Shown piece after piece: positions 2,640 through 32,620 of a stretch of DNA of 64,000 bases. Where the stretch lies: the NCBI GenBank assembly GCA_037447655.1, contig JBBHKE010000339.1:62001-126000 (forward strand), written 5' to 3'. Each line of letters begins with the position of its first letter. Within the stretch, counting starts at the first letter, position 1. The translations under genes and the position numbers were made by a program. Below the pieces are notes generated by a model. That model ran no database searches. It had not been told where the DNA came from and saw only the letters and a program-made list of their open reading frames with translations. The stretch is from Zygnema cylindricum. Lineage: Eukaryota > Streptophyta > Zygnematophyceae > Zygnematales > Zygnemataceae.

Positions 2640-4140
2640 TGTTAAGGGACATTTAGCGTCAATTTATTTTTGTCTTGCCCGTACTTTTCTTACGTCGGTC
2701 AAATCCCTCACTAAGCACTCATCCCCATTTTTTGCATGCCTGCTCATGGGAACAAGGCAGGTAGCAGTGGGCATAGACATTGTTGTGGCAAGCATTCGCA
2801 TTTTGGGTGGGGGGGGGTTTATTGCTGAACTCTTATGCCAATTACCCGGGCAGTGGGCCCTCCTCTGATGATTTCCGGCACGCTCGACAGGTGTCTAGCT
2901 CGTGTGCTTCACAGGCACCCCTGTATTTTTTCGAAGGATTTCCGGGCCATTTTTCCTCTGTACGGTCATTCAAGTACGCAAAAAAGAGCGCACTCAGCCG
3001 GACCAGATTCTTCTATTTTTTTAACTCAGCGGAACGCACTTTATTTCGCACCTAACGGAGGCCTGACGATGGAGTTATTCTGTCCCAAAGATTTACATGC
3101 GACTAGTTGCCACCTGTCCCTTTGGGGGCTACATTGTGGAACGCCACGTAACTTTTGGAATAATCTCGTAGATTTTGCTGTTAGCTATCAATAGGACGTT
3201 ATTTCAGGTCCCTTAGCCGAGTAGAGCATTTATTTATGTGAGTCAACGTTAGGCGTTTCACGTCCATTTAGAACTTTGTTGCTCAGGATGGTGTCATAGA
3301 AAAACACATGACTTCTAACCTAGCCGGAGATAGTCGCCTAACTTTTTGCCCTGAGTGTAGTACAACCTACTTTGTCTTATGTCTGTACGATAAAAATTCC
3401 TGGCCTGTGATTGGCTCCAGGTATTGCTTTGACTTTGGTACTGTCGGTAGGAAAAACTTTGCTTGTATAAGGCATTTGAGGCCGAAGGAGACAGGTTGAT
3501 GTTTTAGTACTGTCTCCTGAGAAAAACCCTAGAAATTCCAACAAACTTTCTTGTGGAGAAATTTTGTTTTTGTATGTGATTGTGACCCTATTCCCATCTT
3601 GGTTTTCATCCGTCCTTTGTGGAAATCATTGTCCAGTTGGGTGGTTGGCACTGTCTTCCCTGTTTTGGGCGATTTGGGGCTAGTGTTCGTTGGAAACCGA
3701 GAACGGTCTTGCCGGTTCTGGGTCGCGGAAACCGCGGAGTTAAGGAGGCCTTACCTGTTCCGGGGTCTTTGAGGGGAGATTTCGTCTCCTTTTGTTGTCC
3801 TCGTTACGATTTGGGGGTAGGTTGAGCTCGCTTCCTATAATTCCATATTCTACCTTTATTCTCTATTTTTCTAAGGACAAGGTGATATTGTTTATTCTGA
3901 GACAACATTTTTATATTTTTATCCTTTCATTATTTTGAGTGGAAGTATCTTTGTTCTCTCTTTGGTAGTCCTTTTTGGGGCTTTGGTTGGGTTTCTTCCG
4001 GGGTCGATTACCAAAATCTTTTGTACCATAATATTGGATTTTGAGAGGATTTTTGTAAGACTATCAACAGACCGTCACATAAATCAGGGACCCGCCTCCA
4101 TCTCCAAGAATTCCATCCTTTTCCTCGGCCCGGGGGAGAG
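2629..4140 (+). repeat. Polypurine tract and 3' LTR of the 1.0-2.6 kb copia relic
   Basis: A purine run (AGAGGGGGGG) ends at 2639 and is followed at once by TGTTAAGGGACATTT, the expected start of a 3' LTR after the RNase H stop. A tataagg box near 3466 followed by a tract with aaaaccctag could mark the promoter and R region. I set the right end near 4140, before a G-rich run at 4133-4168, but no second complete LTR is present to fix it. ORFs at 2780-4222 show no recognisable domain. Confidence 0.55.
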
Positions 4141-4181
4141 GGGGGGGGGGAAAGGAGGGGGAGGATATATCTTTTCGCCCT

Positions 4182-4352
4182 CCTCAAGCACTCATCCCTA
4201 TTTTTTGCATGAATGCTCATAGGAACAAGGTGGGTAGCAGTGGGCATACGCATTATTGTGGCAAGCATTCACATTATGGGCGGGTAGGGGGTTGATTGAA
4301 AAACTCTAATGCCAATTACCCAGGCAGTGGGCCCTCCTTTGATGATTTCCGG
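4182..4352 (+). repeat. Second copy of a 170-bp LTR segment
   Basis: This stretch is a direct, slightly diverged copy of 2714-2885. Both read aagcactcatcccyatttttt, then ggtagcagtgggcata, then tgccaattacccrggcagtgggccctcc and tgatgatttccggca. The left copy lies inside the copia 3' LTR; this one abuts the truncated integrase end of Gypsy-A at 4353. It is probably a fragment of another LTR of the same family. Confidence 0.7.
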
Positions 4353-5276
4353 CACACTCGATTGAACTCCCTTGTTGGAAACTTCTATCACTTTCAAAAT
4401 CACCCGACCGTGTAGAAATATCAAGCGTGTCCTTCTTCTATTCCATCCGATATTCAAAGTCCCCCGGCATAAATCGTCGTTGCTGGGGCACATAATTCCC
4501 GCTCAGGCACTGAGAATACTACAATTGATCCCTGTGTTGAGCCGCCTGTAAATTCCCTATAACGAGAGGCATCTCTCGGTGGAAGATCTTGGTTTTATCG
4601 ACAATCAGTTTTTTGACCATTCCTTTGTCATCAATCTCTAGAAGGACCCCCGCTAGGGCCAAGTTAGCCCCGAGCAATATGGGATGTCGTCCGAATATAT
4701 GAAGTAAGGGCTATAGGAGTAGGGAGAAGCTTGTCTGCCGAATTTGTATCCCATGGCGATCCAAGGAACTCTTCGGTCCCACTCTCCCAAATCTTCTTCC
4801 ACTACATATTTACATAGTGACCGCTTCACTGTCTGTTCACACTTTTCAGCCAAACAATGGACTTGGGGGTAGTCGCGGCTTGTCAGTCGATGATCAATGA
4901 GGCATTTCTCCAAAAGATTAGTAAGTTCTCCCGCAAAATCGGATCCTTAGTTTGTTAGAACCTCTGATGTCGCCCCAAATTTTGACAGCACCCTCTGCAA
5001 AAAGGCATCTACAATTGACTTGGATTCCTTCCGGGGCAAAACCACCAACTCTATCCAATTCAAAAAAAAAAAAATCATGACCAGCACAAAACAGTTCTCC
5101 CGTTTGCTGGTCGGAATAAGTCCCAAAAGATCTAAAGACCACTGATAAAACATCCCAAGGATAGTAAGAGAATAAAGCTCAGTTTCGCCCTTTTTGTCAA
5201 AAGCTGCCTTGACTCGATCACATGAAGAGCAAATCTCCACAATTCGGTTAAATTGGGCCGCAACCCGTGCCACCAA
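4353..5276 (-). pseudogene. Gypsy-A integrase
   Basis: The part at 5276-4918 carries a cysteine pair (CSSCDRVKAAF), then FYQWSLDLLGLIPTSKRENCFVL, the start of the catalytic core with its first aspartate. The part at 4913-4653 has DHRLTSRDYPQ and a degenerate AEKCEQTVK, equivalent to the HPQADGLAER-type helix. Further left a pol C-terminal segment with PGDFEYR and TLDISTR can be read with frame changes, ending near 4353. Closely related to the integrase at 16030-16714, which helps the alignment. At least three frame breaks; non-functional. Confidence 0.8.
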
Positions 5277-5799
5277 TAAGAGCCTGTAACTAGGGAAGTG
5301 GTTCGCTTCTGCCCGAAGTGTCTACATTGCTGATAGAGATGGGTAATCAGAGTTTCCCCACCTCAAAGGGGAGGAACCACTTTCCTCGTACCGTCTGACC
5401 ATTTACGAAGGTGAATGCCTCGGTCCCAATCATGCGGCGTCATCCGGGTCTGCACCTAGGATAATTGAACTCCAGCAAACTGGGGAAGAGGAGACCCCTG
5501 CTGGATAGATTTGAGAGCATCAGAGTTGTTCCTGATATCCTTTCTTCTGGCTCCTATGGGCGCCTACACCTCCACGTCCGCCGAAAAAGTTCACCACGAG
5601 ATTGGGGAAGCCATATTAAGGCGAAAGTTGCTCGAATGAGTCCCAAACTGATTTCCAGGTCCTCATCATGCCGAGCCCTGGTAAAATCGGGGGTAGAGGG
5701 ATTGAGATTTCGGCTAAGTTCGTCGGCATTCCTGTGGATTTCCCTTGCCCCGTGAACAATGCTAAAATCATATTCCTACAAGATAACAACCTATCTGGC

Positions 5800-6990
5800 G
5801 AGTTTGCCGGTTAACTTACTATTTTCCATGATCCATTTCAAAGTTTAGTGGTCGGTAATCAGGGTGAAATGGACCCTATGCAAATAAGGCCGGAAATGTT
5901 AGATTGCCCAAACAGCTGCGAGGAGCTCTCCGTGGTTAGTGTTATAATTTCCCTCCGCTCGGTTATTGCTCTGGCTAGCGTAAGCCACCACATATTCAGC
6001 TCGGGCATCATCGACTTCAGCCAAAACCGCTCCAAATACAAACCTGCTTGAATCAGTATAAAGGAGGAAAGGCCTCTGGTGATCAGGCATCCGGAGCACG
6101 GTGTGCTGTTTTAGAGCATCCTTCAAGAATTAGAAGGCGATATATTTCTCTTCAGCCCATTGCCATTCTTGGTCTTTGCGCAATAACTGATTAAAGATAT
6201 TGGGCGTGAATACAGAACTCGGGGATATAACCGTCGATACTAGTTGGCTAAGCCCAGCAAGGTGCGAAGGGCCGAGATGTCTTGCGGTGGGGGAAGAGCG
6301 TCAAGGGCTGTCATCTTGACCGTATGGGGACCCACAGTCTGAGAGTCACCTCATGTCCGAAGTAAATGATTTTTTGCACCCCAAAAATGCCTTTGCCCAG
6401 GTGACCTTTCAAGCCCGCTACTTAGAGTGCCCAGAGAATGATCTGGATATGCTCCAGGTGTTCCTCAAATGTCTTAGAGAATATGATCACATCATTATTA
6501 TAGCACCGGGCACAATGGATTCCTCGCAGCGTTTTGTCATTGCCCGTTGGAATTTTGGCAAGGCATTATTGAGCCCAAAGGGCATGTTAATCCATTCGTA
6601 CATTCGCGAACGTGCCAAAAATCCCGTTTGCTCCCGGTGCTTTAGTTCCATGGCGATCTGGTGGAAACCGTTCTTCATGTTTAGTGTAAAGTAGATACAG
6701 GCACCAGCAAGAGAGTTGAATATCTTTTCCAAAGTTGGCATCGGATACCGGTCAAAGATGGTGGCCGTGTTCAGCATGCGATAATCTCCACACATCCGGA
6801 AATCTACAGTTTTCCTGGACAAGTCCTTCTTGGGAGGGAGAGCTGTCGAGGAAGCAAACTCATAGAGTCATGTACTTTCCTGAACTAATCTAGCTTCCAC
6901 CAAAGTTTGGACTTTAGCCGTAATGAATACCTTCTCATTGAAACTGAGAGGATACTGCTTCTACCAAACAGTAGTCGTTTCGTCGATTAA
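5800..6990 (-). pseudogene. Gypsy-A reverse transcriptase and RNase H
   Basis: The RT fingers and palm are read at 6822-6487: DFRMCGDYRMLNTATIFDRY, then YFTLNMKNGFHQIAM (first catalytic aspartate changed in the usual LD motif to LN), then MPFGLNNAL. The YxDD box is not intact in the open frame, which ends in IMM. Upstream at 6990-6823 is the usual gypsy lead-in (TPFGIDLIDET). RNase H at 6126-5899 shows LLYTDSSRFVFGAVL, YASQSNNRAEGNY and HGELLAAVWAI. Same family as 14500-15760. Confidence 0.85.
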
Positions 6991-7089
6991 ATCAATTCCA
7001 AAAGGGGTTCCTTTGTATATACCGACATCTCTTTCTGACCATGAGAACACATGCTTGTTTTTGGCCAATAGGTCAAAGAGCCACGCCTT

Positions 7090-7377: not shown

Positions 7378-8386
7378 CTAAGGAGCTTGAAGGTAAATAG
7401 CCCTTGACTCTGGGGATTGGAGACTCGAAAAGGCAAAAGCATGCTTTAGGACCCATGTGATTGCATTCAAATCCATGCTTTGCCCTATTATGCTGCACCT
7501 CAGGATGTATGAAATACCTGGTACGGCTGTAGTTCGCGCATTAAATCCCATGGCCTGCTCTCGTTCTGCGATTTTCGGTGTCGTCTTGCTTTTTGCGGCA
7601 CAATTGTAGATCATTCTAGCTGCTCTTTTCCGATATGCGTGGCTGTAAGGAAAGGAAACTAATGTAGGAAATGCTCTGCATGGTCTTCCCCGTTGGGTGC
7701 ACTGGAAGAACGGAGGACGCTCTGGTTTTTGTCACGGGTGTTGCCATTCGCCCTTTCTCGAGGATTTGCTGCACAGAGTTCTGAGAGTCTGGGATCTGCT
7801 TCTCCAAGATTTTCTCGAGTATCAGAAGCGGGATTAAATTGGTCTAGTAAGCTCGGACTCGTTGTGCCCGAGATCCCATTTGTGGTGGATCAAAGACCAA
7901 TGAAGCCCCTAAAATATGGGTAACCTAATTCCACCTGTCGACCACATGTCTTCGTTTATCATCTATTGGGTGAACATTTTCCAAAACGTACCCCACTTCT
8001 GTGTTTTGGAGCTATAGTTACTATGATATTAACTGCAGCATTGTAAAAAATGTTTTACACCTCCGGTCTTGATGCCCTTTTCCTTGTCCTGCTAGGGAGT
8101 ATCCTTGACAAGGCCATCCTGCCACTACCAAATCTACTCTTCCCAAAGTGGCTAAATGAGGTGTCATGATATTATCCACATTCTGCGGGAGACTTCGGTG
8201 AGCTTTGGAAATTGCGGACACTGGAAGTTGTTGAAGATATAGGTTGTGAAGTTGTAGGAGGCGATGTTCGCTAACAGCTCGTGCTTCAGGCGATATCTCC
8301 TTGGTTGTATAAGATTCTACCTGATATCCTGCTTTCAAAACGGCTTCCAGATCAAAACTGATTCCAAAAAATAGGGATAAAATCAA
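7378..8386 (-). pseudogene. Cytosine-5 DNA methyltransferase domain inside Gypsy-A
   Basis: Signature motifs of C5-cytosine methyltransferases appear in order on the minus strand: motif I LSLFFGISFDLEAVLKAG at the start (about 8383-8325), motif IV with the catalytic Pro-Cys-Gln in AGWPCQGYS (about 8130-8100), motif VI ENV (about 7978), motif VIII-like RVRAY-stop-TNL (about 7860-7840), then a variable target-recognition stretch, and motifs IX/X as EREQAMGF and IGQSMDLNAITW in the 7614-7378 frame. Total length about 1 kb fits one catalytic domain without regulatory modules. The family methylates cytosine in DNA. A stop near 8020, an in-frame TAG in motif VIII and at least one frameshift break it. 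It lies between protease and RT, within pol. The PCQ core itself is intact. Confidence 0.85.
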
Positions 8387-8462
8387 GAGGCCTTAATCGA
8401 CAACTTTCAATGACACCAGTTGTCGGTTGAATTTTTCGTGTTCGGATATGGTCCATGAAACA

Positions 8463-8925
8463 TCACACCGAAGGTTTGAAACTGTTTCCTTGTAAAATAG
8501 TTGAGAATGTCTGTTCCACTCCCCTCCAGAGTTTAGCCACATGTAATAATCTGTCATTGTATTCCTCTTCCCACCGCTTAGAAATAGGGAATTGCTTGAT
8601 CTCCTCAGCTATATCTTTGGAGCTGGCAAAAAGTTCCGCTGGAGAGGATGTAGAATACATCGGGTAGCAGCAAGACACCATGACATTCGTCTTCCTTCGT
8701 TTCCATAAGTCCAAAGGAACCACCACTTTGGTTCCTTGCGGATTTTCGAGGTCCCGAACGGTATATTGTTTTTTCTACACGCTTAACCCCATATTCAACC
8801 GGGTCCATGTGGCCATTCCCAAAAGGATTTCAAATTGAATTCCTTCAACCACTAAGAATGGGAGCTCAATTTTCACCCGTTAGCCTGCGTCAATGGAGAA
8901 TTCAATATTCATGGCCTTGATAATC
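8463..8925 (-). pseudogene. Gypsy-A protease C-terminal half and linker
   Basis: On the minus strand from 8925 the translation reads LPFLVVEGIQFEILLGMATW, the C-terminal strand of a retropepsin with its hydrophobic-LLG turn. The N-terminal half with the catalytic DSG/DTG is missing because the Copia-R 3' LTR sequence begins at 8926. After the protease, an open frame at 8726-8463 (starting MVVPLDLWKRRK) leads toward the methyltransferase; I recognise no domain there. A stop is present near 8883. Confidence 0.6.
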
Positions 8926-9083
8926 CAGCCATGGTTCAACCACTCTCTCTATCGTTCAATGACTACAACAAGTATGGTGGCTAGAGAGAGGAAGTGGAGG
9001 CAGGTTGTTCGCCCTTTCCTTTTCTTTTTTATACTTATATATTTAGACCTAGAAAATACTTTATAAATCAAGTAATTTCAACA
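8926..9083 (-). repeat. Clipped 3' LTR of Copia-R
   Basis: On the minus strand it begins TGTTGAAATTACTTG right after the polypurine tract and matches the first part of the LTR at 14470 leftward, including the gccatggttcaaccactctct block. Homology stops at 8926, where Gypsy-A protease sequence takes over. The remaining ~880 bp of the LTR are missing. Confidence 0.85.
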
Positions 9084-9096
9084 CTCCCCTTATTTT
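9084..9096 (-). other. Copia-R polypurine tract
   Basis: On the minus strand the sequence AAAATAAGGGGAG lies directly before the TGTTGA start of the 3' LTR. The same arrangement (AAAATAAAGGGAG then TGTTGA) occurs at 21547-21560 in the nested derivative, which supports its role as the plus-strand primer. Confidence 0.8.
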
Positions 9097-9744
9097 CTAG
9101 TCTAACTTTAACTTTAGTTTTAGTCCAAATTTTTCTCTGCAATATTTTAATTTGGGAGAAGGCACTAGTTTTGTCATCATATCAGCCACCATTTCCTCAT
9201 TAGATCTATATACAAGATTCACAATCTTATTCTTAACTTTTTCTCTCACAAAACTCAATCCTATGTCTAAATGCTTAGCCTTGAAATGATGTTTTAGATT
9301 AGCTGCAATTGGAATGGCAGCTTGAGTATCACAAAATACTTCATGCACTCCCTCTTTGATATACCTCGATTCTTACAACAAGGATTTGACCTACGTTAAC
9401 TCTTTCACAACAGAAAAAAAGGTCGTGTACTCAGCCTCCAAAGTAGCCTAAGCAACCACCTTTTGTTGTTTCCTGCTCCCACTACAAGCAACTTCCCCCA
9501 TATACAACACATACCCAGAAGTGCATCTTCTCATAGGTGCATCCCTATAACTGGAATCACTCCAAGTAGTGATATCACTGTGCTCCCCTCCCAAATGCAA
9601 CCATAACTTTTTGGTTCCTACCAGATATCTCATGACTCTCTTGGCTGCCTCCCAATCTCTCTTCCTATGATCAGTAAGACTCCTACTGAGGACTCCTAAT
9701 GCTACCGCTAAGTCTGGCCTTGTACAGTTCATTAAATAGATCAA
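9097..9744 (-). pseudogene. Copia-R RNase H
   Basis: The first frame (9744-9448) reads MIYLMNCTRPDLAVALGVLS, then RVMRYLVGTKKLWL and TTWSDSSYRDAPMRRCTSGY, the copia RT thumb to RNase H start. The second (9348-9097) reads VFCDTQAAIPIAANLKHHFK, AKHLDIGLSFVREKV and the end of pol. A stop and frame change between 9448 and 9348 break the reading at the point where SAEAEY-type residues would lie. Otherwise well preserved. Confidence 0.85.
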
Positions 9745-9897
9745 ACTTCCTACAACCTGTCAATAAGGGATAGACTTTATAAACTCTCTCTCCTCTAGAC
9801 TCATCTGATCATCTAACATCATCACTCCTCCTCCTACTCTCCCATCAATTACTTTTTTCATGTCCATGGGAGTGGTACAACTGTTACCGTTTTCCAT

Positions 9898-10530
9898 CTA
9901 GAATTTCTCATGCATATTACCTATTGCTTCTTTGTGAGTAAGTCTGATAATCTTCTTCCCCCTATCTCTTACCATTTGTATCCCCAAAAAATATCTTGCC
10001 TCGCCTAAATCTTTCATATCAAATCTGCTTCTAAGATCTTTCTTTAGCCTATTGATCTTTTCCAAAGACTTACTAAGCACAAGCAAATCATCCACATAGA
10101 TTGCAATAAAAATGACACCATTCTCATCTTCAAACATATAGATAGAATGGTCAGAGCTGATACGGATATATCCTAGACTGGTAAAAAACTCATCTAGTTT
10201 CTTATCCACTGTCGGGGAGCCTGCTTTAGTCCATATAACGACTTTATGAGCTTGCGGACTTTTCTCTCTTCTCCTTCCTCCACGAACCCCTCGGGTTGCC
10301 TCATGAAAATTTCTTCCTCTAACTCACCATTAAGAAAAGCACTCTTAATGTCCATCTGGTGTTTTTCCATGTCTTCCGCTGTTGCTAGAGTGAGGAAAAT
10401 CCTTACTGATGGGAACCAAAAAACTTGAGCAAAGGTCTACTCATAATCAATCCCTTCCTATTGGGTGAACCCCTTTGCTACCAATCGAGCCTTATATCTC
10501 TCAATGGTATTATCAGGGTTCAGTTTTAGT
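9898..10530 (-). pseudogene. Copia-R reverse transcriptase
   Basis: The reading begins in the 10458-11057 frame with PYKKLIAYKSVYKLKLNPDN and ERYKARLVAKGFTQ, passes through a shifted stretch near 10450-10210 (MDIKSAFLNGELEEEIF can be read there), and is open at 10209-9898 with SSDHSIYMFEDENG, IAIYVDDLLVLSKS and MKDLGEARYFLGIQM. The catalytic YVDD box is intact. Stops near 10439 and 10212 show it is not translated as a whole. Confidence 0.85.
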
Positions 10531-11057
10531 TTATATACCGATTTATAGGCAATAAGTTTTTTATATGGATGACAATCCGCTAGTTCTGTGGAATTGGCTT
10601 CCATGATGGAAGCCATCTCATCATTTATGACTCCAATCCATCTATCTTTTTCTAGGCTATTCACAGCCTCCAAGTATGACTCAGGCTCATCAAGATGAGA
10701 TAGCTTAGTTACCTTATGAGCAGCCTGTTTCTCTTTTATCGTTTTGCTGCTCTTTCTCCCTTTCTCAAACTCTGAAGCTGGAATGGAAGGAAGTCTCGGG
10801 TTTCTTCTTATTGTCTCATTGGCTCCTCTGTTCATGGAAGCCGGTTCCAGTTCCATCTCTTTTGTCTTTTCGAAGTCCATAGGAATATGTGAGGTGTGCG
10901 GTAAATCTTTTGTATCTTGGATCTCCCCTGAATCTACAATCACTGGTTTACACATGTCCTTTTCGGAAAAGACAGGACTCTCCTCGCTTTCAGACTCAAA
11001 GCGATTTTTTATCTTTTTGGTATATTTGAAGGGGTGAAATGACTTTCCTTCATCCAT
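10531..11057 (-). CDS. Copia-R linker between integrase and RT
   Basis: An open stretch rich in charged residues, with DEGKSFHPFKYTKKIKNRF at the start and ESEESPVFSEKDM after it. The closing part (SYLEAVNSLEKDRWIGVIND, EMASIM) is the usual pre-RT segment of copia polyproteins, where a leucine-tryptophan rich helix precedes the fingers. It continues in frame into the RT start. No catalytic domain. Confidence 0.6.
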
Positions 11058-11069
11058 GACAACTAGTTA

Positions 11070-11977
11070 TTATACTTGAATAATATCTTGCTTTGCTAAG
11101 TCATAGACTCTATATCCCTTGACATCCTCATCATATGCTACAAAGTATCTAGGTTTGCCCAAAGCATCTAGTTTCCATTTTTTCTTATCCGTATCAAGAC
11201 TATAAACTTGGCTATCGAATACTTTAAGGTGTGAAATATATGGTTTCCTTCCAACCCATCTCTCATAAGGTGTCATTCCCTTTAAGGCTGAGTTAAGGAC
11301 TCTATTCTTAATGTAGTTGGAAGAGTTCATGGCTTTTGCCCAAAATCTCTTTCTTATTTTGTTGTCAGCCAACATACTACATACACTATCTCCTAGTGTT
11401 CGGTTCAATCTTTCAACTACCCCATTTTATTCCATGTTATATGGTACATTTTTCTGGTGCTGAACTCCCTCATCTCTTAGGTATTCCTCAAACTGGTTAG
11501 AGGTAAATTCTCCCCTATTATCACTCCTTATTTTCTTAATAGGGGTTCCATGCAACTTCTCACTCCATGCTTTATATTCTTTGAAGTAAGTTGGTGTTTC
11601 AGACTTTGTTTTGAGGAAGTAGACTCTGAACACTTAGACCAGTCATCGGTTATTGTTAACATAAACCTCTTCCCTCCAACCGAAGGTACTCTTATAGGTC
11701 CCCTGATATTTGTGTGGATTAGATCTAGTACATTTTCCCCCCTATATCTGGCGACTTTGGGAAAAGGAAGTATGTGAGCTTTTCATTGAGCACATCCACT
11801 ACAATCATCCACCATTTCATTTTCACCAAACTGAATGCCTTCTTCTATACCAAGCTTCTTTATTTCCCTCAACTTATCAAAATGCTCATGCCCCAACCGC
11901 TTATGCCAAATCATCAATTTTGGAACACCAACAAAATAAGCATTCTTCTTTTCATTACTCAGGTTAAGCCTAAACAT
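11070..11977 (-). pseudogene. Copia-R integrase
   Basis: The gag-pre-integrase zinc segment at 11977-11783 reads IWHKRLGHEHFDKL and DDCSGCAQ, giving the H-H-C-C set. The core continues at 11633-11427 with EYKAWSEKLHGTPIKKIRSD, NRGEFTSNQFEEYLRDEG (second catalytic aspartate in RSDNRGEF). The C-terminal part at 11408-11070 has NRTLGDSVCSML, WAKAMNSSNYIKNR and MTPYERWVGRKP. Stops separate the three pieces near 11780, 11637 and 11430; in the last an ATGGAATAAAAT suggests a single change from a coding to a stop codon. Confidence 0.85.
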
Positions 11978-12106
11978 GCTTTGGCTACCCTTACATGCTG
12001 TGAGGTAGACTTCATCCCCATATTTTGTTTTAAAGACTCCCTTTCTAATAAAGGTATCAAACTCTTTGTCATCTAGTACAGATGTAGAGACAAGATTTTT
12101 GCTCAG

Positions 12107-12745
12107 CTAAGGAATGTAAAGTACATCTGAGAATGTGAGTAAAGAAGTCTTACCTTCCACTAAGACTTTCAAATCTACTGACCCAACTAGATCTATAGTA
12201 ACGACTCTCTCATCCCCATACTGTATCTCTACAATTGGGATCTTTTTTAGCTTAGTGAAAAGTTGTTTATCACGACACATATGCATGGATGCACCTACGT
12301 CAATGATCCATCCTTCGTGTGGAGCTTCCCGAACTTCTCCAAGCGAACACTTCTGTCTTCGAGGGTTCTCCTTCTCCTCCTGACTCTCATCAGGAAGAAG
12401 CTCCCAATCCTCCTCAGAGGACTCGTCCTCGGATTCTCCTGTCACTTTTGTGACCACAAGTGCCTTTTTCTTCCCTCCGGAAGAACCCCCTCCACGGTTC
12501 TCTTGGAGCCTCAGCTCCGAAAGTTTGACACAATCTGCGATGAAGTGTCCCGGCTTTTTGCAAAAATGACAAAGACCCTTTGGGGGGCTTGGTCCTCCAA
12601 GCTGATCTCTCTCTCCTTTGAATGGTTTCTCCGGATCCTTCCCCCATCGGTTTCCTCCTGCAACTAGAGCTTGGATGCTCTCCCCCCCCCTCCTAATCTC
12701 AATTGTGTTCTCCGCACAAGTATCATCCGGACCACTGTGTTCCAC
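12107..12745 (-). CDS. Copia-R nucleocapsid zinc knuckle and protease
   Basis: A long open frame of 212 codons. The CCHC knuckle CHFCKKPGHFIADC lies about residues 58-71 and would bind RNA packaged in the particle. An acidic stretch (ESEDESSEEDWELLPDES) follows. The retropepsin starts at WIIDVGASMHMC near residue 147; the usual catalytic D-S/T-G is D-V-G here, keeping the aspartate. It continues to FSDVLYIP, where a TAG ends the frame; the next copia residues (QLSKN) follow out of the stop. Preceded in another frame by gag. Confidence 0.85.
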   Translation of the reverse strand: MEHSGPDDTCAENTIEIRRGGESIQALVAGGNRWGKDPEKPFKGERDQLGGPSPPKGLCHFCKKPGHFIADCVKLSELRLQENRGGGSSGGKKKALVVTKVTGESEDESSEEDWELLPDESQEEKENPRRQKCSLGEVREAPHEGWIIDVGASMHMCRDKQLFTKLKKIPIVEIQYGDERVVTIDLVGSVDLKVLVEGKTSLLTFSDVLYIP

Positions 12746-13392
12746 TTCCCTGAACTGTCAGTCATTTCCTGTACTCGGTACAGTATGTTTTCATACTCAT
12801 CGGGTAACTTCAAGATGAGAGTGGTAACTTTCATCTTCATTGTAATTGTCCACCTGGCACTCTCCATCTCCATATACAAACAAGAGAGATCATTATAATA
12901 TTCCAACATCTATCCTCCTTTGTAAGTATAATTCCTTAACTTTTGTTCGGCCAACTGGAGCTCCTTAATAAAACCAGCTCTATAGATTTTCGTCAAACTC
13001 ACCCAAAACTCCTCGGCCTTGTAAATGTGAAGATGGGGGGTTACTTAAGCCTAATTGAGGTTTCTTAGTATGAAGTTTTTGGCAGCCATGTTGATGTCTT
13101 CCCACATTTGGGTGTCGTTCTCCGCGGTCTTCACGGTCACCGCTCCGGGTGCCGTGGTAATAGGAGCAATTGCAGTAAGAGGCGTCTCCTTCTCTTTCCC
13201 CTTTTTGGACACAATGTTGTCCCCATCATCTGCCTCCTCTCGTGCAACATAGGTTGCTGCAGCAAACCTTATTCCACCAAACCTTGGTGGAGTTCCCTGA
13301 GTTGGACGTTTCACTTGTCCACTAACAATACCCTTGTATCGTTTTTCGCACAAAGTTCCCATCATCATGGCTTCTCAATAGATGAACCGTGA
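12664..13392 (-). pseudogene. Copia-R gag
   Basis: The capsid-like part begins near 13392 with a reading close to that of the related gag at 23601 (MDGTDFTYWEF-type start). It shows LCEKRYKGIVSGQVKRPTQG, then an alanine/threonine-rich insert and TQMWEDINMAAKNFILRNL. The second piece at 12909-12664 has MLEYYNDLSCLYMEMES and LKLPDEYENILYRVQ, the UBN2/Retrotran_gag-type helix pair. Stops near 13050 and 12912 interrupt it. Forms the virus-like particle in an active element. Confidence 0.8.
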
Positions 13393-13417
13393 TCCATTGA
13401 AGGTGGGCACCCTAGAG

Positions 13418-23601: not shown

Positions 23602-24712
23602 AAGAAGCTAATTTAGATAGTGCCGACTCAAAGTTGATTTAAACCCAAGTGACTGACCCCTTGACAGTCAAAATTCCAATATAGATTCACCCCTGTGAAA
23701 TAACACTTTCTGCGTGCTCAGTTTCACCACAAAATGCAAAGTTAGAATATGAGATTTGGACACATTCACCCACTTTGACTTTCCCTTAGAAATACCGCCA
23801 CCCTGGCAAACAAAATCTCTGAGCGAGAACACCTCTATGTAGCTTGGACTTCCTTGAGTCCGCAGCAAAAAGAATCACTGAAAATGGTCAAGTAAATTGA
23901 TAGTTTTGGCTGGCCAAAGTTTGCCATTTTATACAAGGTGCTCTCAAAATTTTCTAAGTCCTATTCCCCCTCTAAAACTCTATCTACTGAAGTACGGCAC
24001 CAATTAAAATAATGTGTCGTACAGAAAAGTACAGGTGCCGGTGTACTTTCTGTACGGCCATAGTACGACAGGGCCAAAATATCGACACATGTCATATCAT
24101 GATTAGTTTTTGTAATCCCCGAAGTTGCCGCAATCCAATGTGGTTTTGCCACGTGTCATTTGATGTGGCGCTGATCGCAAACCGCAAAAATCCTATTACG
24201 CGATTTTGGCATCCTTCGCAGCCGTCTGATTATATCCGGATTTCAATCGTAGCCGTCATAAATACTTGCGCGGTATTCTTTTTGATGTTAAACAAAATGC
24301 ACGGTATGTATTTGGTAACCGTATCGTACTTCGTATTTTATATAACTGTATCCATGCACTACGTATATATTTCCAGTTAAATGATAAAGTCTACGTGTAA
24401 CAAATTAAATAATTATCAAACCTTATATGTCTTAAAACTAGCTCTAGACTAAACGGTTAAAGCTACTGGCTATGATTGATTAACACACGGCAGGTACCAG
24501 GATCAATTCCTGGGTCCGTCAACTTGCTTTTGGTAAGTCTACCCAATTTAACCCTTTCTTCTCTATAGAGCTTAGGCAGCCATGGCTCTAGCTCCCTATC
24601 CAGCCTTCAGTGACTACAACAAGTGTGGGGGCTTGGAGAGGGGAGTTAGAGGCAGAGAGCCTCTGCCTTTTTCTATCCTATTTACAGACCTAGAAAATAC
24701 ACAAATATCACA
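23558..24712 (-). repeat. 5' LTR of the nested Copia-R derivative
   Basis: From TGTGATATTTGTG at 24712 to GAGTTTCA at 23558 on the minus strand, 1155 bp. It is followed on the right by the target duplication GAAGC. The hairpin CCAGGATCAATTCCTGG is at 24497-24513. Confidence 0.9.
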
Positions 24713-25270
24713 GAAGCATTACTGTACCTTATGTCCAATGCAGATGCTGTCCAAAAATTCGTGAGACAATTTCCTCCTCAATCGAAAATAATTCATTTAG
24801 ACTCATCTCAGTCAAACATACGGGCTGAAATTTACCTTTGAGCAAGCAGCTAAATATGTGGTTAGGTATCGTCGTGGTGGGATGCTCATGACAATCCTGA
24901 ATCTCAATGAAACCAGTTTGACCAATCCCCACCACCTCTGAGGAACCCGTGGCCTTCTAATAGGCCTTCAAAAACCCTGGCCATGGGAAATCCGCCATTT
25001 AATTTCGGAGACTGATTGTGTTTCCGTTGTGGAAACTAGGGGCACGATGCCCGCATGTGCCTGGATAAGTCAGCCACATGCACCCATTGGAACCAGAAGG
25101 GACATTATGTCCACCGTTGTCATGTTAAGGACCCTAATTTCTCATATCACAATCAGACTAGAACGGTGGAATTCATGCCCGTTTTGCCAAGCTGGTCACT
25201 CCTCCTACCGAGACATGGAAAGAGGCGACTATGCCTAAGATCTCTAGGAGAGAGAGGGAAAAGGCCGAGT
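24713..25270 (+). pseudogene. Gypsy-M copy 1 gag remainder and nucleocapsid
   Basis: Gag resumes as EALLYLMSNADAVQKFV after the nested element. The nucleocapsid has two zinc knuckles: the first is broken by a stop and a substitution (CFRCGN-stop-GHDARMC, near 25020-25060), and the second reads CTHWNQKGHYVHRC with Trp in place of the second Cys. Copy 2 keeps both intact as CFQCGKTGHDASMC and CTNCKQTGHFVYRC. Followed by PNFSYHNQTRTVEFMPVLPS and a lysine/arginine-rich piece. Confidence 0.75.
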
Positions 25271-25541
25271 AACAAGTCATGATGTCCGCCATGATAAAGG
25301 AACAATTTGCCGCCTTCATGGCCGAAATGAAACCCCAGTTCACGGGGATGGCAAGGACAATCGTCCACATGCCATCGTTGGCCGGCCGAATCCTTCGAGA
25401 TTCTATTGTCCAACAACGAGCAGCTACTTTGATAAGGGCTCGCCTGATCATAATCGGGACGGAAAATTACAAAATTCCCGTATTCCACTTTCTATCGAGA
25501 AAGTATCTCTTTGTCCTCTACTAGACACAACTTCTTCCATA

Positions 25542-26555
25542 GTGGCTAAAGCTCTCACCATTTTGGAAAGTACCATACATGATGCACACCGAGTCAAAGA
25601 ACGACTAAACATCCTTTCTGCCATGATTTATGAAGCCCCCAGGGCCTCTCCCTTTCCTAATGAGGTTCCCAAAGCCTCTCCCGTTGTTGATGAGTTTGCT
25701 GCAGCCGCCGCTTTGAGGGCATTGCAGCTAAACCATAGTCTTTCAGTTATTCAGCCGGTTATCGCGGATGAGCGCTGTGACCTTTATCCTCACATCAGTT
25801 TCTTAGACAATGCTCGAAAGTCCTTCTCCATTAATGGTGTTGCTCCTTCTCTACCTCTCATCGACACCGAAGCCAATCCCGTGATCCTCGGATCCGGATT
25901 TGCGCTCAAGCTTAGTCTGACCGCATACAAGTTTCAAGCCACGGCTACTTCGCTACTCACTTCGGCCGATACCACGGAGCCGGTACTTAGAATCACCAAG
26001 GACCCGCTCATCTTTCGATTCCAAAACGGAACCGAGGGTGAGTACGTGGAAGTTTCTGTCCAAGCATTGGTCACCAAATGCAACGACTACGAATGCTTAT
26101 TGGGACAAGGTGTTATCTTCCGAATCGGCGGGGGAGTACATATGCATGATCAAACCTTCTCCTACCGCCCCTCTAATTTTCCGGGAGGCAAAATTTGCCT
26201 CCCTTTTGTCTTTGCTCGCAAGCCATTGCCCACTATGGCACATTTCGCTTCCGCTCTCCCTACATTTTCCAGTATTGACCTTCGATATAGTTTTAGTGAG
26301 CCCGGTTTTCTCCTCGACTCGCGTCATCTCTTGGATATCGTCAAACCTGAGGTTTTTCTACACATTCTCCATGTGGTGGATAACGATACTAATGGGATGT
26401 TGAGTTTGCAGAGGGTTTATACATGTACAGGTGGTGATCAAGGGTTCCACATGGAGTGCCTCTCTCCTCCATTATCTTTGAAACCCGGTAGATCATTGTT
26501 GCTGTTCCAGGCCCTCGGTTGTGTTGACCTGCCCCTTTACGGGCTAAGAAGCTAG
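25542..26555 (+). CDS. Gypsy-M copy 1 protease fused to a PHD-like finger
   Basis: A continuous 337-codon frame. Residues 1-85 match the gag-protease linker of copy 2 (KALTILES.., FLDNARKSFSINGV). The retropepsin spans about 95-200: SLPLIDTEANPVILGSGFAL (catalytic D in DTE, where DTG/DSG is usual) and DYECLLGQGVIF. Residues 204-280 (MHDQTFSYRP, KICLPFVF, PGFLLDSRHL) match the post-protease part of copy 2. At about residue 280 similarity to copy 2 stops; the tail contains CTGGDQGFHMECLSPPL, the second half of a PHD zinc finger (Cys, His and Cys spaced as usual), with the final Trp-x-Cys pair lost. The methyltransferase, RT, RNase H and integrase expected in between are missing, so the frame looks like an internal deletion joining the start and end of pol. 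Confidence 0.75.
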   Translation: MAKALTILESTIHDAHRVKERLNILSAMIYEAPRASPFPNEVPKASPVVDEFAAAAALRALQLNHSLSVIQPVIADERCDLYPHISFLDNARKSFSINGVAPSLPLIDTEANPVILGSGFALKLSLTAYKFQATATSLLTSADTTEPVLRITKDPLIFRFQNGTEGEYVEVSVQALVTKCNDYECLLGQGVIFRIGGGVHMHDQTFSYRPSNFPGGKICLPFVFARKPLPTMAHFASALPTFSSIDLRYSFSEPGFLLDSRHLLDIVKPEVFLHILHVVDNDTNGMLSLQRVYTCTGGDQGFHMECLSPPLSLKPGRSLLLFQALGCVDLPLYGLRS

Positions 26556-26752: not shown

Positions 26753-26757
26753 CACCC

Positions 26758-27339: not shown

Positions 27340-27900
27340 TCATGGATCTGGGGCAGAACAGGAGTCGGGCAGCGAAGCTAAAGAATGTGTGATATAAAAC
27401 TTTGTTGACATAGAAGCTAAGTCGTCATCGAAATTCTCTCGAACTGCATTGTCGGTGGTCCCTAGCAAAGGATTTTGGGACATGCCGTCTGCATTTAGGC
27501 TAAGTAATCCTAGACAGTGAATCAATTCCACATCATATTCTTGTATTATTAATGCCTATCGCGCTAATTTTCCTGACAATTTATAGTTCGTCATCAGCCA
27601 ATGTAAAGGTTGATGGTCGGTTAAAAGGGTAAACGGTTTTCCGTAAAGGTAGTGACAAAAGTGTACAATACCCCAAACTGCTGCCAGACATTCTCCTTCA
27701 TAACTACTGTAATTTGACTCCGCACAATTATTACTCTTGCTTGCGTAAGCGACCACGTATTCTTCTCATGTTAGTTCACGCTGAGTTAAGATGGCCGCAA
27801 TGCCAGGCTTTCCAAAGTCTGTTTGTAGGCAGAAAGGTAATTTTTGATTAGCAGGTCGGAGGATGGGAGCACTAGAGAGAGCATCTTCCAACTTCTGAAA
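27340..27900 (-). pseudogene. Gypsy-M copy 2 RNase H and tether
   Basis: Blocks read FCLQTDFGKPGIAAILTQ (first catalytic Asp in QTD), then VAYASKSNNCAESNYSSYEG, ECLAAVWGIVHFCHYLYGKP, TLLTDHQPLHWLM and, in the next frame, GLLSLNADGMSQNPLLG, the usual NADGLSR tether before integrase. Single stops near 27770 and 27550 break the frame; otherwise conserved. Confidence 0.85.
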
Positions 27901-28918
27901 ATCCACAATCTGATCAGGTCCCCATACAAAGGGGACCTCTTTTTTGAGTAGATCGTTCAATGGTGAAGCGACAGTGCTGAAACCAGGGAAAAATCTGCCA
28001 TAATAATTAGCTAATCCTAAGAAGGCTCGAAGACTCGTGACATCAACGAGGGTTGGCAGTTTGCTGATTGCCTCAGTTTTTGCTTTCAAGTGGTGTGATC
28101 CCTTCAAAAGAAATGAAATGTCAAAGGTAAGGCACACCCTTGAACTCGAAAGTACATTTAGTTGGATGACATTTTAATCTGACCTTTTTCAGTTCAGTTA
28201 TGACCCATTCGATATGAGCAACGTGATCTTCAACTGTGGCATAGGCGATAATCAAATCATCAATATAACATCTTGCAAACTTGTAACCACCTAAAACTGA
28301 ATCCATTACTTGTTGAAAAACTGCGAGGTCGTTTTTAAGTCCAAAAGGCATGACAGACCACTCCCAACGACCATCACTACCCCAAAAGGCGGTTTTATGC
28401 CTATCCTTCACCTCTTTTTCAATCTGGTGAAAGCCTTGTTGTTAATCCAAAATACTGAAATATTTAGCGCCTCCTACATGATGAAATATGTATTTGGCCA
28501 ATGACATTGGATGTCGATCTTATATCGTTCTAGCATTGAGTTCACGGAAATCGTGGCACATCAGGCGATTAGTAAAGTTTCTTTCGGCATCTTTTTTCCT
28601 GGGCATGACTGTGGGTGATGCAAAAGTAGAATCCGATCGATAAATGAGGCCTGCTTCCTCCTATTCAACGAAGCGTTGGTCCACTAATTCCCATTCCGTT
28701 TCCGATAAGCGGTGTTTCGGCTTGAAAATGGGACGATCGTCTTCAAAATCTATTGACAATTTATAGGTGGTATGGCGACCAAGATCATTCATAGAGAAAG
28801 CAAAAGCGTCAATTTTGCAGAGATCATCTTCGTTTAGTGAGTCATGTTCAGATTGAGAGAGATTAGAGCCAAATTTCCATTTAGGAGTTTTCGAACCTTT
28901 AATCGTCATTGCTTCCAT
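27901..28918 (-). pseudogene. Gypsy-M copy 2 reverse transcriptase
   Basis: The lead-in at 28918-28661 has LGRHTTYKLSIDFEDDRPIF and KPKHRLSETEWELV. A short degraded stretch near 28650-28420 holds FPGKKDAERNFTNRLMCHDF-type residues and a damaged first catalytic motif. The palm is open at 28411-28121 with KTAFWGSDGRWEWSVMPFGL, and ARCYIDDLIIAYATVEDHVA, an intact YIDD box. The thumb at 28137-27900 has LPTLVDVTSLRAFLGLANYY and GRFFPGFSTVASPLNDLLKK. Several single stops. Confidence 0.88.
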
Positions 28919-30245: not shown

Positions 30246-31125
30246 CTAGACCATATTGATGAGGTTTGACCTGAATTGGTTTCTAATTAATGGGAAGAAA
30301 ACCAGAAGGATCTACAGAAATATGAAAAATAGGTGGAACCCGCGATAAAGGAATCTGAAGTGTGTGTTTGTAGATGTGATCAAACTCGCAAGAATCAATA
30401 ATAAAACCTGGATTATCGAAATGTTTAGACAAAGAAGGACTGTCGGGTAGAATTTCCTTTGCGGAAAGAGAATGAAAAATTTCAAATCCCACCGAATTTT
30501 TGAAATAAGCAGGGACAGATTGGGTTGCGTGAGCAATAATGGGTATGGGTTGGTGTGTTGAAATTAGAGGGAGACAAATTTTCTTTTCCGGATAATTGGT
30601 AGGGTGGTAGGAAAAAGTCTGATCGTACATATCAATGCCGCCTCCTACTCAAAAAATCACATCTTGCCCAACTAAACACTCGTAATCACTACATTTTGTG
30701 ACCAACGCGTGAGCACGAACTTCTGCAAAATCAGATTTTGTACCATTTTCAAACCTAAAGCAGAGTGGATCATTCGCAATTGCCAAAACTGGTTCGGTTG
30801 TTCCTGTTGAGGTGAGTAAACGTGTGGAAGTGGACTGAAGTTTATCAACAGTCAGACCTAGTTTCAGTGCAAAAGATGACCCCAAAATAACTGGTTTTGC
30901 ATTGGTGTCAATAAGTGGTAATGACGGTATGACACCATTGACTGAAAATGCACCCTTCCCATTATCTAGAAAACTTTTATGTGGGTCAAGTGAACTACGC
31001 TCGTCGGTAGAGATATGCCTAAAAGGGTCAAGATTACGGTTCATTTGTAAAGCCTCTAATGGTGCAAATGGGATAGATGTGACCGTAGTTTTTAGGTTGG
31101 GTAAATTGGAAATCATAGTAGACAA
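30246..31125 (-). pseudogene. Gypsy-M copy 2 protease and post-protease segment
   Basis: The frame at 31125-30649 has FLDNGKGAFSVNGVIPSLPL, IDTNAKPVILGSSFALKLGL and SDYECLVGQDVIF, a retropepsin whose catalytic motif is DTN (copy 1: DTE; consensus DTG/DSG), so the glycine is absent in both copies. After a stop at 30647 the reading continues at 30630-30283 with MYDQTFSYHPTNYPEKKICL and PGFIIDSCEFDHIYKH, parallel to residues 204-285 of the copy 1 ORF, and then enters the methyltransferase with a stop near 30281. Confidence 0.8.
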
Positions 31126-31158: not shown

Positions 31159-31877
31159 TTAAATAGAGCGGTCAAGAATATTGAGTGCTTCAGCCATGAT
31201 GGTGGAAGCTATTTCGGGCAAATTGGTTATGGTTTCCTTGGAAAATAATAATGGTAGACGGGTGCTAGACTGTTTAACCTCGCGATTGTGATCAACTGTC
31301 CCTTTGTCAAACGTGGTTGCCCGCTTTTGAATGGTTGAATCTCGTAAAACTCGACCAGTTAGCGTGGGAAAGTGGACAACTGTAGAAGCGATACCGGTTA
31401 GGTGAGTTGGTGGTTTCATTTGAGCCATAAGGGTTGCAAATTGGTCTTTCATCATAGCGGCCATTTGAGTTTGCATTTCCTCTCTTTCTTTTTCTCTCCG
31501 GGACATTTTAGGTGGAGAGTTTTTTTTTCTGGCTCTTTAACTAGTTTGACTACTTTAGCAGATCTAGCGGGTATGCCACCATTTCGAATCCGATTTTGAT
31601 ATGAAAATTCAGGGTTTTTGATGTGACAACGATACACAAAGTGGCCGGTCTGTTTGCAATTTGTACAGGTCGCAGATTTATCCGGGCACATCGAAGCATC
31701 ATGCCCGGTCTTGCCACATTGGAAACAAATCTGATTGGATGGTTGATTTGGTGGGGTCCCTATGGCAAGGACCCTTGGTGGCCGATTATTTGGCCCCAAG
31801 TTACGAGGATTTAGGGAATTGAAGGGATAGGTTCTTTTTGAGGAGATTTTGGTCGATCGTGGGCTTCCCACCAACAA
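31159..31877 (-). pseudogene. Gypsy-M copy 2 nucleocapsid and gag-protease linker
   Basis: Two intact CCHC zinc knuckles in tandem: CFQCGKTGHDASMC and CTNCKQTGHFVYRC, 9 residues apart, in the 31877-31452 frame. The following lysine/glutamate-rich tract shifts to the 31506-31159 frame (KEREEMQTQMAAMMKDQFAT, LMAQMKPPTHLTGIAS, TLTGRVLRDSTIQKRATTFD), matching MIKEQFAAFMAEMKPQFTGM of copy 1 at about 25290. Nucleic-acid binding in the particle. Confidence 0.85.
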
Positions 31878-31879
31878 TT

Positions 31880-32620
31880 CGTCATCTCGTATACTAGGGC
31901 GTATTGAGCTGCTTGGTCGAACGTAAATTTGAGACCGTATGTTTGGGTAAGATGGCTTTGAATAAATTTCTTTGATTGGAAAAGAAACTGTCCAACAAAA
32001 TTCTAGATAGTTTCGGCATTTGATATCAAATTGGGAAACGCTTCCCGCAAGGTCTCCATGCGGGCTCGTAAAGCGGGGGCAGTTTCGCCCGGTTTACGCT
32101 CAAAATTCATTAATTCCATAACTTGGTCAGGATTCTGCATGCGATACTCCTCTTGTAACAAATTAAACATTATGGTGAGAGGGTCTAACAACAGAATAGT
32201 CATCCCAGGTCGTGCCGGGACAGCGGCTTAGAAAAAATGGCATATTGGTGGGGAACCTCCGCCTCAGCCAGGTAAAGAACATTGCCAAGCGCATCTAAGA
32301 CCTCGGGAATAGCAGCTTTATATGGAATTTCTATTTGACCTATGACCTCGACGTACCAGCAAACTGTAGAGAATATTCAGTCATTGCAAGTATGCCATCA
32401 TACTTGCGGGAATATAAGGTACGGGCGGACCCACGAAGGTAACGCTTGAGAAGGGATAAAGCGACACGCATGTCAAATCTATTTTGGTAACGGAAAGCTA
32501 GATCTCACATTTGAGTGTCGAATAACATTTGAAAATGAGATAAACTCATAGTATCTTTCATCCCGGAAAAGCAGAATTGGAGTTTACTAAGAGTGCCCTC
32601 CAATGTGGAGGCCATCAAAA
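31880..32620 (-). pseudogene. Gypsy-M copy 2 gag capsid region
   Basis: Blocks on the minus strand match copy 1 gag at 19794-20371: GTLSKLQFCFSGMKDTMSLS, RYLRGSARTLYSRKYDGILA, and MFNLLQEEYRMQNPDQVMEL, NFERKPGETAPALRARMETL, then REAFPNLISNAETI. Several stops and frame changes between 32350 and 32200. Continues downstream toward the zinc knuckles through QSFKKFIQSHLTQTYGLKFT-type residues near 31970-31910. Confidence 0.8.

What the first reader, a model, noticed from the sequence alone, without database searches (positions are those of the whole stretch)
7378..8386. Cytosine DNA methyltransferase carried inside a gypsy pol gene (Gypsy-A)
C5-methyltransferase motifs I, IV (with PCQ), VI, VIII and IX/X lie in order between the protease and RT of a Ty3/gypsy element, same strand. 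Retrotransposon-borne DNMTs are known in charophytes and dinoflagellates, so the class is described, but this family and its state are worth study: such an element could methylate its own copies or the host genome. The motifs have been kept readable while stops accumulated, which suggests the ancestor encoded a working enzyme.
Basis: partly seen in the sequence, partly recalled or inferred. Interest (0 to 1): 0.9.

Follow-up and report, generated by a model that had tools for sequence, protein, structure and literature searches.

The report
Retrotransposons carrying a DNA methyltransferase
In this genome, most likely of a green alga or plant, two old families of jumping genes carry a DNA-methylating enzyme inside their copying gene, kept by natural selection and joined to a probable histone-reading domain; the copy that was flagged is a dead relic of one of them.

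Summary
Window 8392-7393 (minus) is a DNMT3-type cytosine methyltransferase between protease and RT of a gypsy-type element. This copy is dead: six in-frame stops, one frame change, 5' part missing. A second element, of another family (B), lies at 32.6-26.8 kb. The 353-Mb genome has at least 152 matches to the flagged piece and many B copies; some DNMTs lie in long open frames. DNMT shows purifying selection, and DNMT and RT trees agree.

Added here: (1) in family A an in-frame UAG precedes the DNMT-RT frame in 55 of 59 copies examined, in a context close to a plant-virus readthrough signal; (2) a PHD finger follows the integrase in both families; (3) family B has ECQ for PCQ in the catalytic loop in 15 of 17 loci (two unreadable); (4) one family-B element has DIRS-like split repeats and a possible 4-bp target duplication. 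A DRM gene suggests a streptophyte host.

The class is known (KnitGypsy-Dnmt3, 2018); this is a new variant. Methylation, readthrough and histone reading are inferred, not shown.

The parts
7727..8392 (-). Family-A DNMT, motifs I-VIII (first frame); five in-frame stops
   Evidence: PF00145 1e-7; 68% to L011; stops
7393..7752 (-). Family-A DNMT, motifs IX-X (second frame); one stop
   Evidence: 62% to L011; stop
8598..8924 (-). C-terminal part of aspartic protease of the same element; N-terminal part absent; two stops
   Evidence: tblastn with L011 protease, 72%
8595..8597 (-). Place of the conserved family-A UAG; this copy has a sense codon
6344..6954 (-). Reverse transcriptase of the same element (two overlapping pieces)
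   Evidence: PF00078 2.6e-8; 75-77% to L011
5755..6195 (-). RNase H of the same element; five stops
   Evidence: 83% to L011
4411..5401 (-). Integrase (5401-4743) and C-terminal part (4698-4411); DNA homology to other copies ends at 4364, before the PHD finger
31273..32615 (-). Family-B element: gag
   Evidence: tblastn with L009 gag, 40-69% in five pieces
30667..30996 (-). Family-B element: protease
   Evidence: 70% to L009
29193..30276 (-). Family-B element: DNMT (GWECQG form), pieces 30276-29611 (one stop) and 29606-29193 (none)
   Evidence: 73% and 61% to L009; stops
27508..28708 (-). Family-B element: RT (28708-27991) and RNase H (27957-27508)
   Evidence: 76-80% and 85% to L009
26755..27210 (-). 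Family-B element: integrase, cut off at 26755
   Evidence: 78% to L009
14539..16713 (+). Second family-A-like fragment: RT, RNase H, integrase; no DNMT match beside it
   Evidence: 75% DNA identity to 4786-7020
24677..26105 (+). Second family-B-like fragment: gag and protease, no DNMT match after it; more gag of this type at 19791-20372 (+)

Best explanation
The feature is the relic of a retrotransposon, Ty3/gypsy by its genes, whose Pol carries a DNMT3-type methyltransferase between protease and RT. In family A the layout is gag and protease, an in-frame UAG, then DNMT-RT-RNaseH-integrase-PHD. Most likely working, with steps marked: ribosomes mostly stop at the UAG and a minority read through to make the Pol part (inferred from conservation and context); the DNMT is therefore made in RT-like amounts and packed with RT (inferred); integrase with its PHD finger brings the complex to marked chromatin (inferred from the domain); the DNMT methylates the new cDNA or fresh insert, which favours quiet persistence in a methylating host (inferred; the weakest step). 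Shown: domain order, DNMT3 kinship, kept catalytic motifs in family A, purifying selection, agreement of DNMT and RT trees, UAG conservation, the PHD finger, and for one family-B element split repeats.
For: DNMT lies before RT and RNase H in 4 of 4 long open frames scanned. Kinship: DNMT3A E 5e-14 for L011, 5e-18 for the 13-copy profile, with DRM2 only weakly and in permuted register; AlphaFold2 model pTM 0.78 whose 50 listed PDB matches are all DNMT3A, 3B or 3C entries. Selection: of 59 family-A pairs with dS 0.05-1.5 (190 pairs in all) 58 have an upper 97.5% bootstrap bound of dN/dS below 1, and 3 of 3 usable family-B pairs of 21; medians fall from 0.39 (dS 0.02-0.1, 4 pairs) and 0.25 (0.1-0.3, 38 pairs) to 0.12 (1-2, 8 pairs). 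DNMT and RT trees of 16 copies both split A from B at 100 and share three subgroups in B. UAG. PHD. Split repeats.
Against: No activity data. CpG depletion, the footprint expected of self-methylation, is moderate in A (0.62, 0.65 in two copies), slight in B (0.89-0.94 in four) and strongest in a window copia element in which no DNMT was found (0.38), so it does not single out DNMT carriers. Family B's ECQ loop could weaken catalysis. The family-A copies with the longest open Pol frames (L011, L012) have breaks in gag or protease, so a family-A copy open throughout was not shown. The UAG context lacks the last A of the plant-virus consensus; re-initiation is an alternative to readthrough. DNMT evolves faster than RT (77% against 93% identity, L009-L013). 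DNMT-free sister elements were neither found nor excluded (search not answered). Family-A ends were not resolved. The 4-bp target duplication is one case and could be chance (about 1 in 256).
Confidence: 0.5

Rival explanations
1. The DNMT domain is kept for a non-catalytic job, such as binding DNA or nucleosomes to help RT or integrase, at least in family B, where the Pro beside the catalytic Cys is Glu.
For: GWECQG in 15 of 17 family-B loci (L004, L021 gave no readable match) and GWPCQG in 32 of 35 family-A loci (L034, L050, L055 no match), the window holding one of each. Slight CpG depletion in B. DNMT faster than RT. K. nitens DNMT without activity in yeast, inconclusive.
Against: Cys, Gln, the Asn of ENV and two motif-VIII Arg are invariant, and the Glu of ENV nearly so, in 13 aligned copies of both families, more than binding alone should need.
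Confidence: 0.25
2. The enzyme works on the host rather than on the element: many copies raise or reshape genome-wide methylation, as proposed for Symbiodinium.
For: Copy number: at least 152 matches, 1406 first-look candidates. Proposal in PMC5890265.
Against: K. nitens, with a like element, has plant-like methylation. Nothing here measures the methylome.
Confidence: 0.1
3. Passenger: a captured gene copied with the element without benefit.
For: The window copies and many others have stops.
Against: Purifying selection in 58 of 59 usable A pairs; domain kept in two families with about 41% identical DNMTs; trees agree.
Confidence: 0.05
4. The substrate is RNA (primer tRNA or element RNA), not DNA.
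For: DNMT2, a C5-methyltransferase relative, acts on tRNA (PMC5890265 calls it a tRNA methyltransferase).
Against: DNMT2 is far weaker than DNMT3A in the same search (3e-6 against 5e-18).
Confidence: 0.05

Closest known systems
KnitGypsy-Dnmt3 of Klebsormidium nitens (PMC5890265; parts 1-2 of 7, sections 9 and 10, and passages read)
   Same: DNMT3-type, unrearranged, intronless DNMT in the Pol ORF of a gypsy element; key residues kept; purifying selection; repeat layout described as DIRS-like with gypsy domains, which one family-B element here matches (A-coding-B-A-B).
   Different: Here two families with about 41% identical DNMTs; conserved UAG in family A; PHD finger after integrase; ECQ form in family B. 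Whether KnitGypsy has a UAG, a PHD finger or the same place within Pol is not in the text I read (figures and supplements not seen). Its sequence could not be compared.
SymbioDIRS-Dnmt3 and SymbioLINE-Dnmt of dinoflagellates (PMC5890265)
   Same: Retrotransposon-borne DNMT; DIRS-like repeat order for SymbioDIRS, whose enzymes methylate CG de novo in yeast.
   Different: DIRS with tyrosine recombinase, or LINE; not gypsy with DDE integrase.
Plant DRM and DNMT3 (host enzymes)
   Same: C5-methyltransferase motifs.
   Different: The probable host DRM (L146) has the rearranged order and is 21-23% identical to the retrotransposon DNMTs. A multi-exon host DNMT3 was not seen among 150 scored of 547 candidates.
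Tj1 of Schizosaccharomyces japonicus (gypsy/Ty3; PMC4600332, passages)
   Same: A stop codon separates gag from pol and is needed for efficient integration.
   Different: There the stop ends Gag; here it follows the protease and precedes the DNMT. The passages mention no DNMT.
Bdelloid Juno/Vesta/TelKA LTR elements (PMC5408684, passages)
   Same: An extra enzyme domain (dUTPase) sits between protease and RT.
   Different: Different enzyme; no chromodomain after the integrase there.

Membership tests
C5-cytosine methyltransferase, DNMT3 type | Motifs I, IV, VI, VIII, IX, X in linear order | tested here: met
   I-VIII aligned to DNMT3A, IX-X by eye
C5-cytosine methyltransferase, DNMT3 type | Nearest solved relatives are DNMT3 by profile and by fold | tested here: met
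C5-cytosine methyltransferase, DNMT3 type | Catalytic PC dipeptide in motif IV | tested here: inconclusive
   Met in family A (32 of 35 loci, 3 unreadable); not met in family B (EC in 15 of 17, 2 unreadable; Cys kept)
C5-cytosine methyltransferase, DNMT3 type | Placement in a tree with host DNMT3, DRM, CMT, MET1 | not tested
   protein database off; no host DNMT3 located
C5-cytosine methyltransferase, DNMT3 type | Methylates DNA | not testable with these tools
   needs an assay
Ty3/gypsy retrotransposon | gag, aspartic protease, RT, RNase H, then DDE integrase with H2C2 zinc domain | tested here: met
   (protease and zinc knuckle score below Pfam's cut-offs)
Ty3/gypsy retrotransposon | Plain LTR-coding-LTR layout | tested here: not met
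   One family-B element shows A1-coding-B1-A2-B2 instead; family-A ends not resolved. So it is gypsy by genes, not by repeats.
KnitGypsy-Dnmt3 kind | Unrearranged DNMT3-type domain in gypsy Pol, no introns | tested here: met
KnitGypsy-Dnmt3 kind | DIRS-like repeat order with gypsy domains | tested here: met
   One complete family-B element, A 931 bp 100% and B 243 bp 99.6% identical; not established for family A
KnitGypsy-Dnmt3 kind | Common descent with the K. nitens element | not testable with these tools
Type I stop-codon readthrough (UAG_CAR_YYA, PMC3542737, passages) | UAG followed by CAR YYA | tested here: inconclusive
   UAG CAA UU matches in most copies; the next base is mostly C, sometimes G or U, never A in the copies read; the pattern could not see A
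Type I stop-codon readthrough (UAG_CAR_YYA, PMC3542737, passages) | Measured readthrough | not testable with these tools
   needs a reporter

The most novel reading that the evidence does not exclude
A retrotransposon lineage that carries both a chromatin reader (PHD behind the integrase) and a DNA-methylation writer (DNMT3 type), makes the writer and RT only by UAG readthrough (family A), and uses them to place and mark its own new copies; and in one sublineage (family B) the writer's catalytic loop was rebuilt (PCQ to ECQ) under selection, giving either altered chemistry or a selected non-catalytic methyltransferase.
Probability: 0.3. Interest if true: 0.87.

Novelty: new variant of a known kind. 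Interest (0 to 1): 0.72.

Why it matters
DNA methylation is a usual way for hosts to silence such elements, so an element that keeps its own methyltransferase under selection is a paradox that needs an explanation. This genome offers well over a hundred copies in two deep families, one with the standard and one with an altered catalytic loop, plus a reader domain and a candidate translation control. That makes the question of what a retrotransposon gains from a methyltransferase open to direct tests with isolated domains and a methylome.

Tried and rejected
Rejected: chance motif match. Rejected: derivation from the host DRM found (rearranged order; 21-23% identity). Close viral origin not supported: the 80 kept of 246 IMG/VR relatives are at 24-34%, and no phage record matched a 123-residue piece of the window's DNMT at 1e-5. 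Self-methylation footprint by CpG depletion: not specific to DNMT carriers. LTRs of family A: not found by blastn or Smith-Waterman in two copies with flanks; one repeat pair in those flanks matched copia coding sequence of the window. Host species: not identified; the passages of a Closterium paper that I saw give assemblies of 438-975 Mb. tRNA scan of the window: none. No paper with these added features was listed by searches; the library lacks most subscription journals.

Limits: copies were chosen from HMM or protein hits, and for dN/dS from those with open frames, so the set is selected. Genome counts are lower bounds. B-type hits were told apart by the matched range only. The generic form of the stop-codon pattern did not complete; direct reading of 20 copies replaced it.

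Full report
What was checked. The finding says that a C5-methyltransferase lies between protease and RT of a gypsy element at 8386-7378. The minus strand shows motifs I-VIII in one frame and IX-X in a second. Pfam gives PF00145 at 1e-7 for the first DNMT piece and RVT_1 at 2.6e-8 for the RT piece; the second DNMT piece and three protease-like pieces match no family. With proteins of relatives as queries the window element reads protease 8924-8598, DNMT 8392-7727 and 7752-7393, RT 6954-6344, RNase H 6195-5755, integrase 5401-4743 and 4698-4411. There are five stops in the first DNMT piece and one in the second. At about 8926 the element is cut off; a 158-base piece from there to 9083 recurs at 14313-14470, and copia genes follow (read by eye). 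At 4364 DNA homology to other copies ends, before their PHD finger.

A second element. tblastn of the DNMT pieces against the window finds another DNMT at 30252-29301 (35% and 30%), in an element that reads gag 32615-31273, protease, DNMT, RT, RNase H and an integrase cut off at 26755. It belongs to a different family, called B here; the flagged one is A. Fragments akin to A and B lie at 14539-16713 and 24677-26105.

The genome. The window is part of a 352.8-Mb assembly in 2689 contigs. PF00145 gives 123 matches (123 scored of 782 candidates), with open frames up to 2395 aa. The window's own piece gives 152 matches, itself included (150 scored of 1406); the listed ones are at 60% identity or more, the nearest other copy at 76%. 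These are lower bounds. Four long open frames were scanned (L009 and L010 of family B, L011 and L012 of family A): the DNMT precedes RT and RNase H in all four and integrase in three; zinc knuckle and aspartic protease precede the DNMT in the two B frames, below Pfam's cut-offs. In family A the protease, with a VDTGA motif, lies in the frame before the UAG and scores just under the cut-off (22.3 against 24.3 bits). L011 and L012 have further breaks in gag or protease that they do not share (read by eye), so their Pol frames are open but the whole coding region is not.

What kind of methyltransferase. The L011 DNMT matches DNMT3A at 5e-14 over motifs I-VIII in linear order, the L009 one at 1.1e-10. 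A profile of 13 copies gives DNMT3A 5e-18, DNMT3C 2.5e-17, DNMT3B about 1e-15, then HaeIII 7.5e-8, DNMT2 3e-6, HhaI about 4e-6 and plant DRM about 4e-5 in permuted register. An AlphaFold2 model from that alignment (pLDDT 72, pTM 0.78; residues 92-106, which include part of the catalytic loop region, and 219-251 are poor) has DNMT3A, 3B or 3C entries in all 50 listed PDB matches, TM up to 0.74 by target length. L146 holds a gene with motifs VI-X before motifs I-IV, the DRM order (read by eye), 21-23% identical to the retrotransposon DNMTs. DRM is described as restricted to streptophytes (PMC12344493, passages), so the host is most likely a streptophyte. A human DNMT3A query gave 150 scored of 547 candidates at 27-40%; I saw no multi-exon DNMT3 among them, but exons can be missed.

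Two families, one history. DNMTs of A and B are about 41% identical, their RTs 55% (L011 against L009). Trees of 16 copies from DNMT and from RT both split A from B at SH-aLRT 100 and share three subgroups within B (in the RT tree two of them at 91 only); within A resolution is low and window A and L019 have long branches. Outgroups without a DNMT were not obtained, so one capture before the A-B split is the simplest reading but not proven.

Selection. Nei-Gojobori estimates on 20 family-A and 7 family-B open DNMTs: A medians 0.39 (dS 0.02-0.1, 4 pairs, one at 0.57), 0.25 (0.1-0.3, 38), 0.17 (0.3-0.6, 5), 0.145 (0.6-1, 5), 0.12 (1-2, 8); 127 of 190 A pairs are saturated or at dS 2 or more, 3 are nearly identical. 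Codon bootstraps put the upper bound under 1 in 58 of 59 usable A pairs and 3 of 3 usable B pairs of 21. Window A against L045 has dN 0.14, dS 1.21 over 219 codons. One same-pair comparison: 0.14 for DNMT, 0.09 for RT (L011-L012). Copies were chosen for open frames, which biases the set.

A conserved stop codon. In family A an in-frame TAG lies 65-70 codons before DNMT motif I, right after the protease. Seven loci show TAG CAA TT followed by C or G (L008, L011, L012, L019, L022, L023, L024), although the DNMTs of L019 and L024 are only 51-59% identical to L011; L020 has TAG but TAA after it. A 29-base pattern beginning with TAG has 223 sites in the genome against 1 for the reversed pattern; it allowed C, G or T but not A at the ninth base. 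Of 70 DNMT hits on contigs up to C1224, 38 have an exact site 201-210 bases upstream, 35 of them in frame. Of the other 32, 20 were fetched without regard to the codon: 17 have TAG (15 of these followed by CAA TTC), 1 has TGC, 2 could not be aligned. With the window copy, which has a sense codon, that is 55 TAG of 59 examined; 11 were not examined. In 23 aligned copies (18 of them from that set, 5 earlier loci) TAG and CAA TTC are 96-100% conserved, third positions included; upstream third positions are at 35-87%; downstream, high conservation goes on for some 18 bases after CCN. The consensus for efficient plant-virus readthrough is UAG_CAR_YYA (PMC3542737). A gypsy element, Tj1, needs a stop codon between gag and pol (PMC4600332). 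The longest family-B frame (2395 aa) has no such stop. Readthrough is likely but unmeasured; the downstream conservation could also be protein constraint.

PHD finger. After the integrase, family-B L016 has PF00628 at 3.5e-10 (40 bits, cut-off 24) and family-A L019 25.3 bits; L011 and L012 are below the cut-off (17.5 and 21.5 bits). With the L011 piece as query 4 of 7 A loci and 2 of 9 B loci of 10 kb match; several others end before that point. Of 75 B-type DNMT hits 29 have a listed PHD match 3-6 kb downstream on the same strand, 28 of them at 3.8-4.2 kb (only 150 of 984 PHD candidates were scored); in C1344 both lie in one 2395-aa frame. Host PHD genes are probably in that list too.

Catalytic loop. 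Motif IV reads GWPCQG in 32 of 35 family-A loci and GWECQG in 15 of 17 family-B loci, the window counted once in each; five loci were unreadable, and L007 belongs to neither family. What Glu for Pro does is unknown.

Ends of the element. In one family-B copy (L009 with its neighbour L061) a 931-base block before gag recurs 100% identical after pol, between two copies of a 243-base block (99.6%): A1-coding-B1-GC-A2-B2, beginning TG and ending CA, with TTGG on both sides. L062 shows two B blocks and part of the block between, but no A1 was found in its 10-kb neighbour L010. This is the order that PMC5890265 gives for DIRS-like elements and, by its Fig. 4 legend, for KnitGypsy-Dnmt3. Here it goes with a DDE integrase. 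The near-identity of the repeats points to a recent insertion. The 4-base match is a single case. In family A no duplication and no LTR pair was seen.

CpG content. Observed/expected CpG: A 0.65 and 0.62, B 0.89-0.94 (four), window A 0.69, window B 0.79, window copia 0.38, window 45-64 kb 1.02. Depletion is therefore not a mark of DNMT carriers.

Comparison with what is known. PMC5890265 describes the class in K. nitens and dinoflagellates; SymbioDIRS enzymes methylate CG in yeast, the K. nitens one did not in that assay. PMC12344493 says that some DNMT3 members sit in retrotransposons, naming LTR Copia and DIRS, of streptophytes and dinoflagellates. None of the listings of searches shows a UAG before the DNMT, a PHD finger after the integrase, or the ECQ form; figures and supplements of the 2018 paper were not seen, so these may exist there. 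Verdict: real; the ancestral enzyme was very likely functional; the class is known; this is a new variant with several testable novelties.

Noticed in passing
window 9084-13545 (-): A copia element with strong CpG depletion (0.38) adjoins the flagged gypsy copy; a 158-base piece at 8926-9083 recurs at 14313-14470 (89%).
   Followed up: partly
window 2705-2887 and 4178-4361: Two direct repeats of about 184 bases (86%), one of them where homology to other family-A copies ends; the stretch between holds sequence akin (72%) to the 5' side of a family-A copy, in opposite orientation.
   Followed up: partly
window about 26100-26760: Two broken family-B elements meet: gag-protease (+) ends and a cut-off integrase (-) begins.
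   Followed up: no
L146 (C2414:40000-43500, minus) and C2414:27597-27950: Probable host DRM gene, motifs VI-X before I-IV, with a second similar hit about 14 kb away.
   Followed up: partly
L007:1498-1665 (C514): A DNMT exon of neither retrotransposon family (GGPPCQGASGHNR ... ENV); looks like a host DNMT1/CMT-type exon (recalled, not tested).
   Followed up: no
L010:6344-6664: Short tandem array of 62-base units beside a family-B copy.
   Followed up: no
L009:2-1015: A 31-35% identical RT-RNase H fragment of another element lies directly left of the complete family-B element.
   Followed up: no
L061:480-481: Two bases (GC) separate the CA end of B1 from the TG start of A2, like a joint between two element ends; may bear on how split-repeat gypsy elements replicate.
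   Followed up: no
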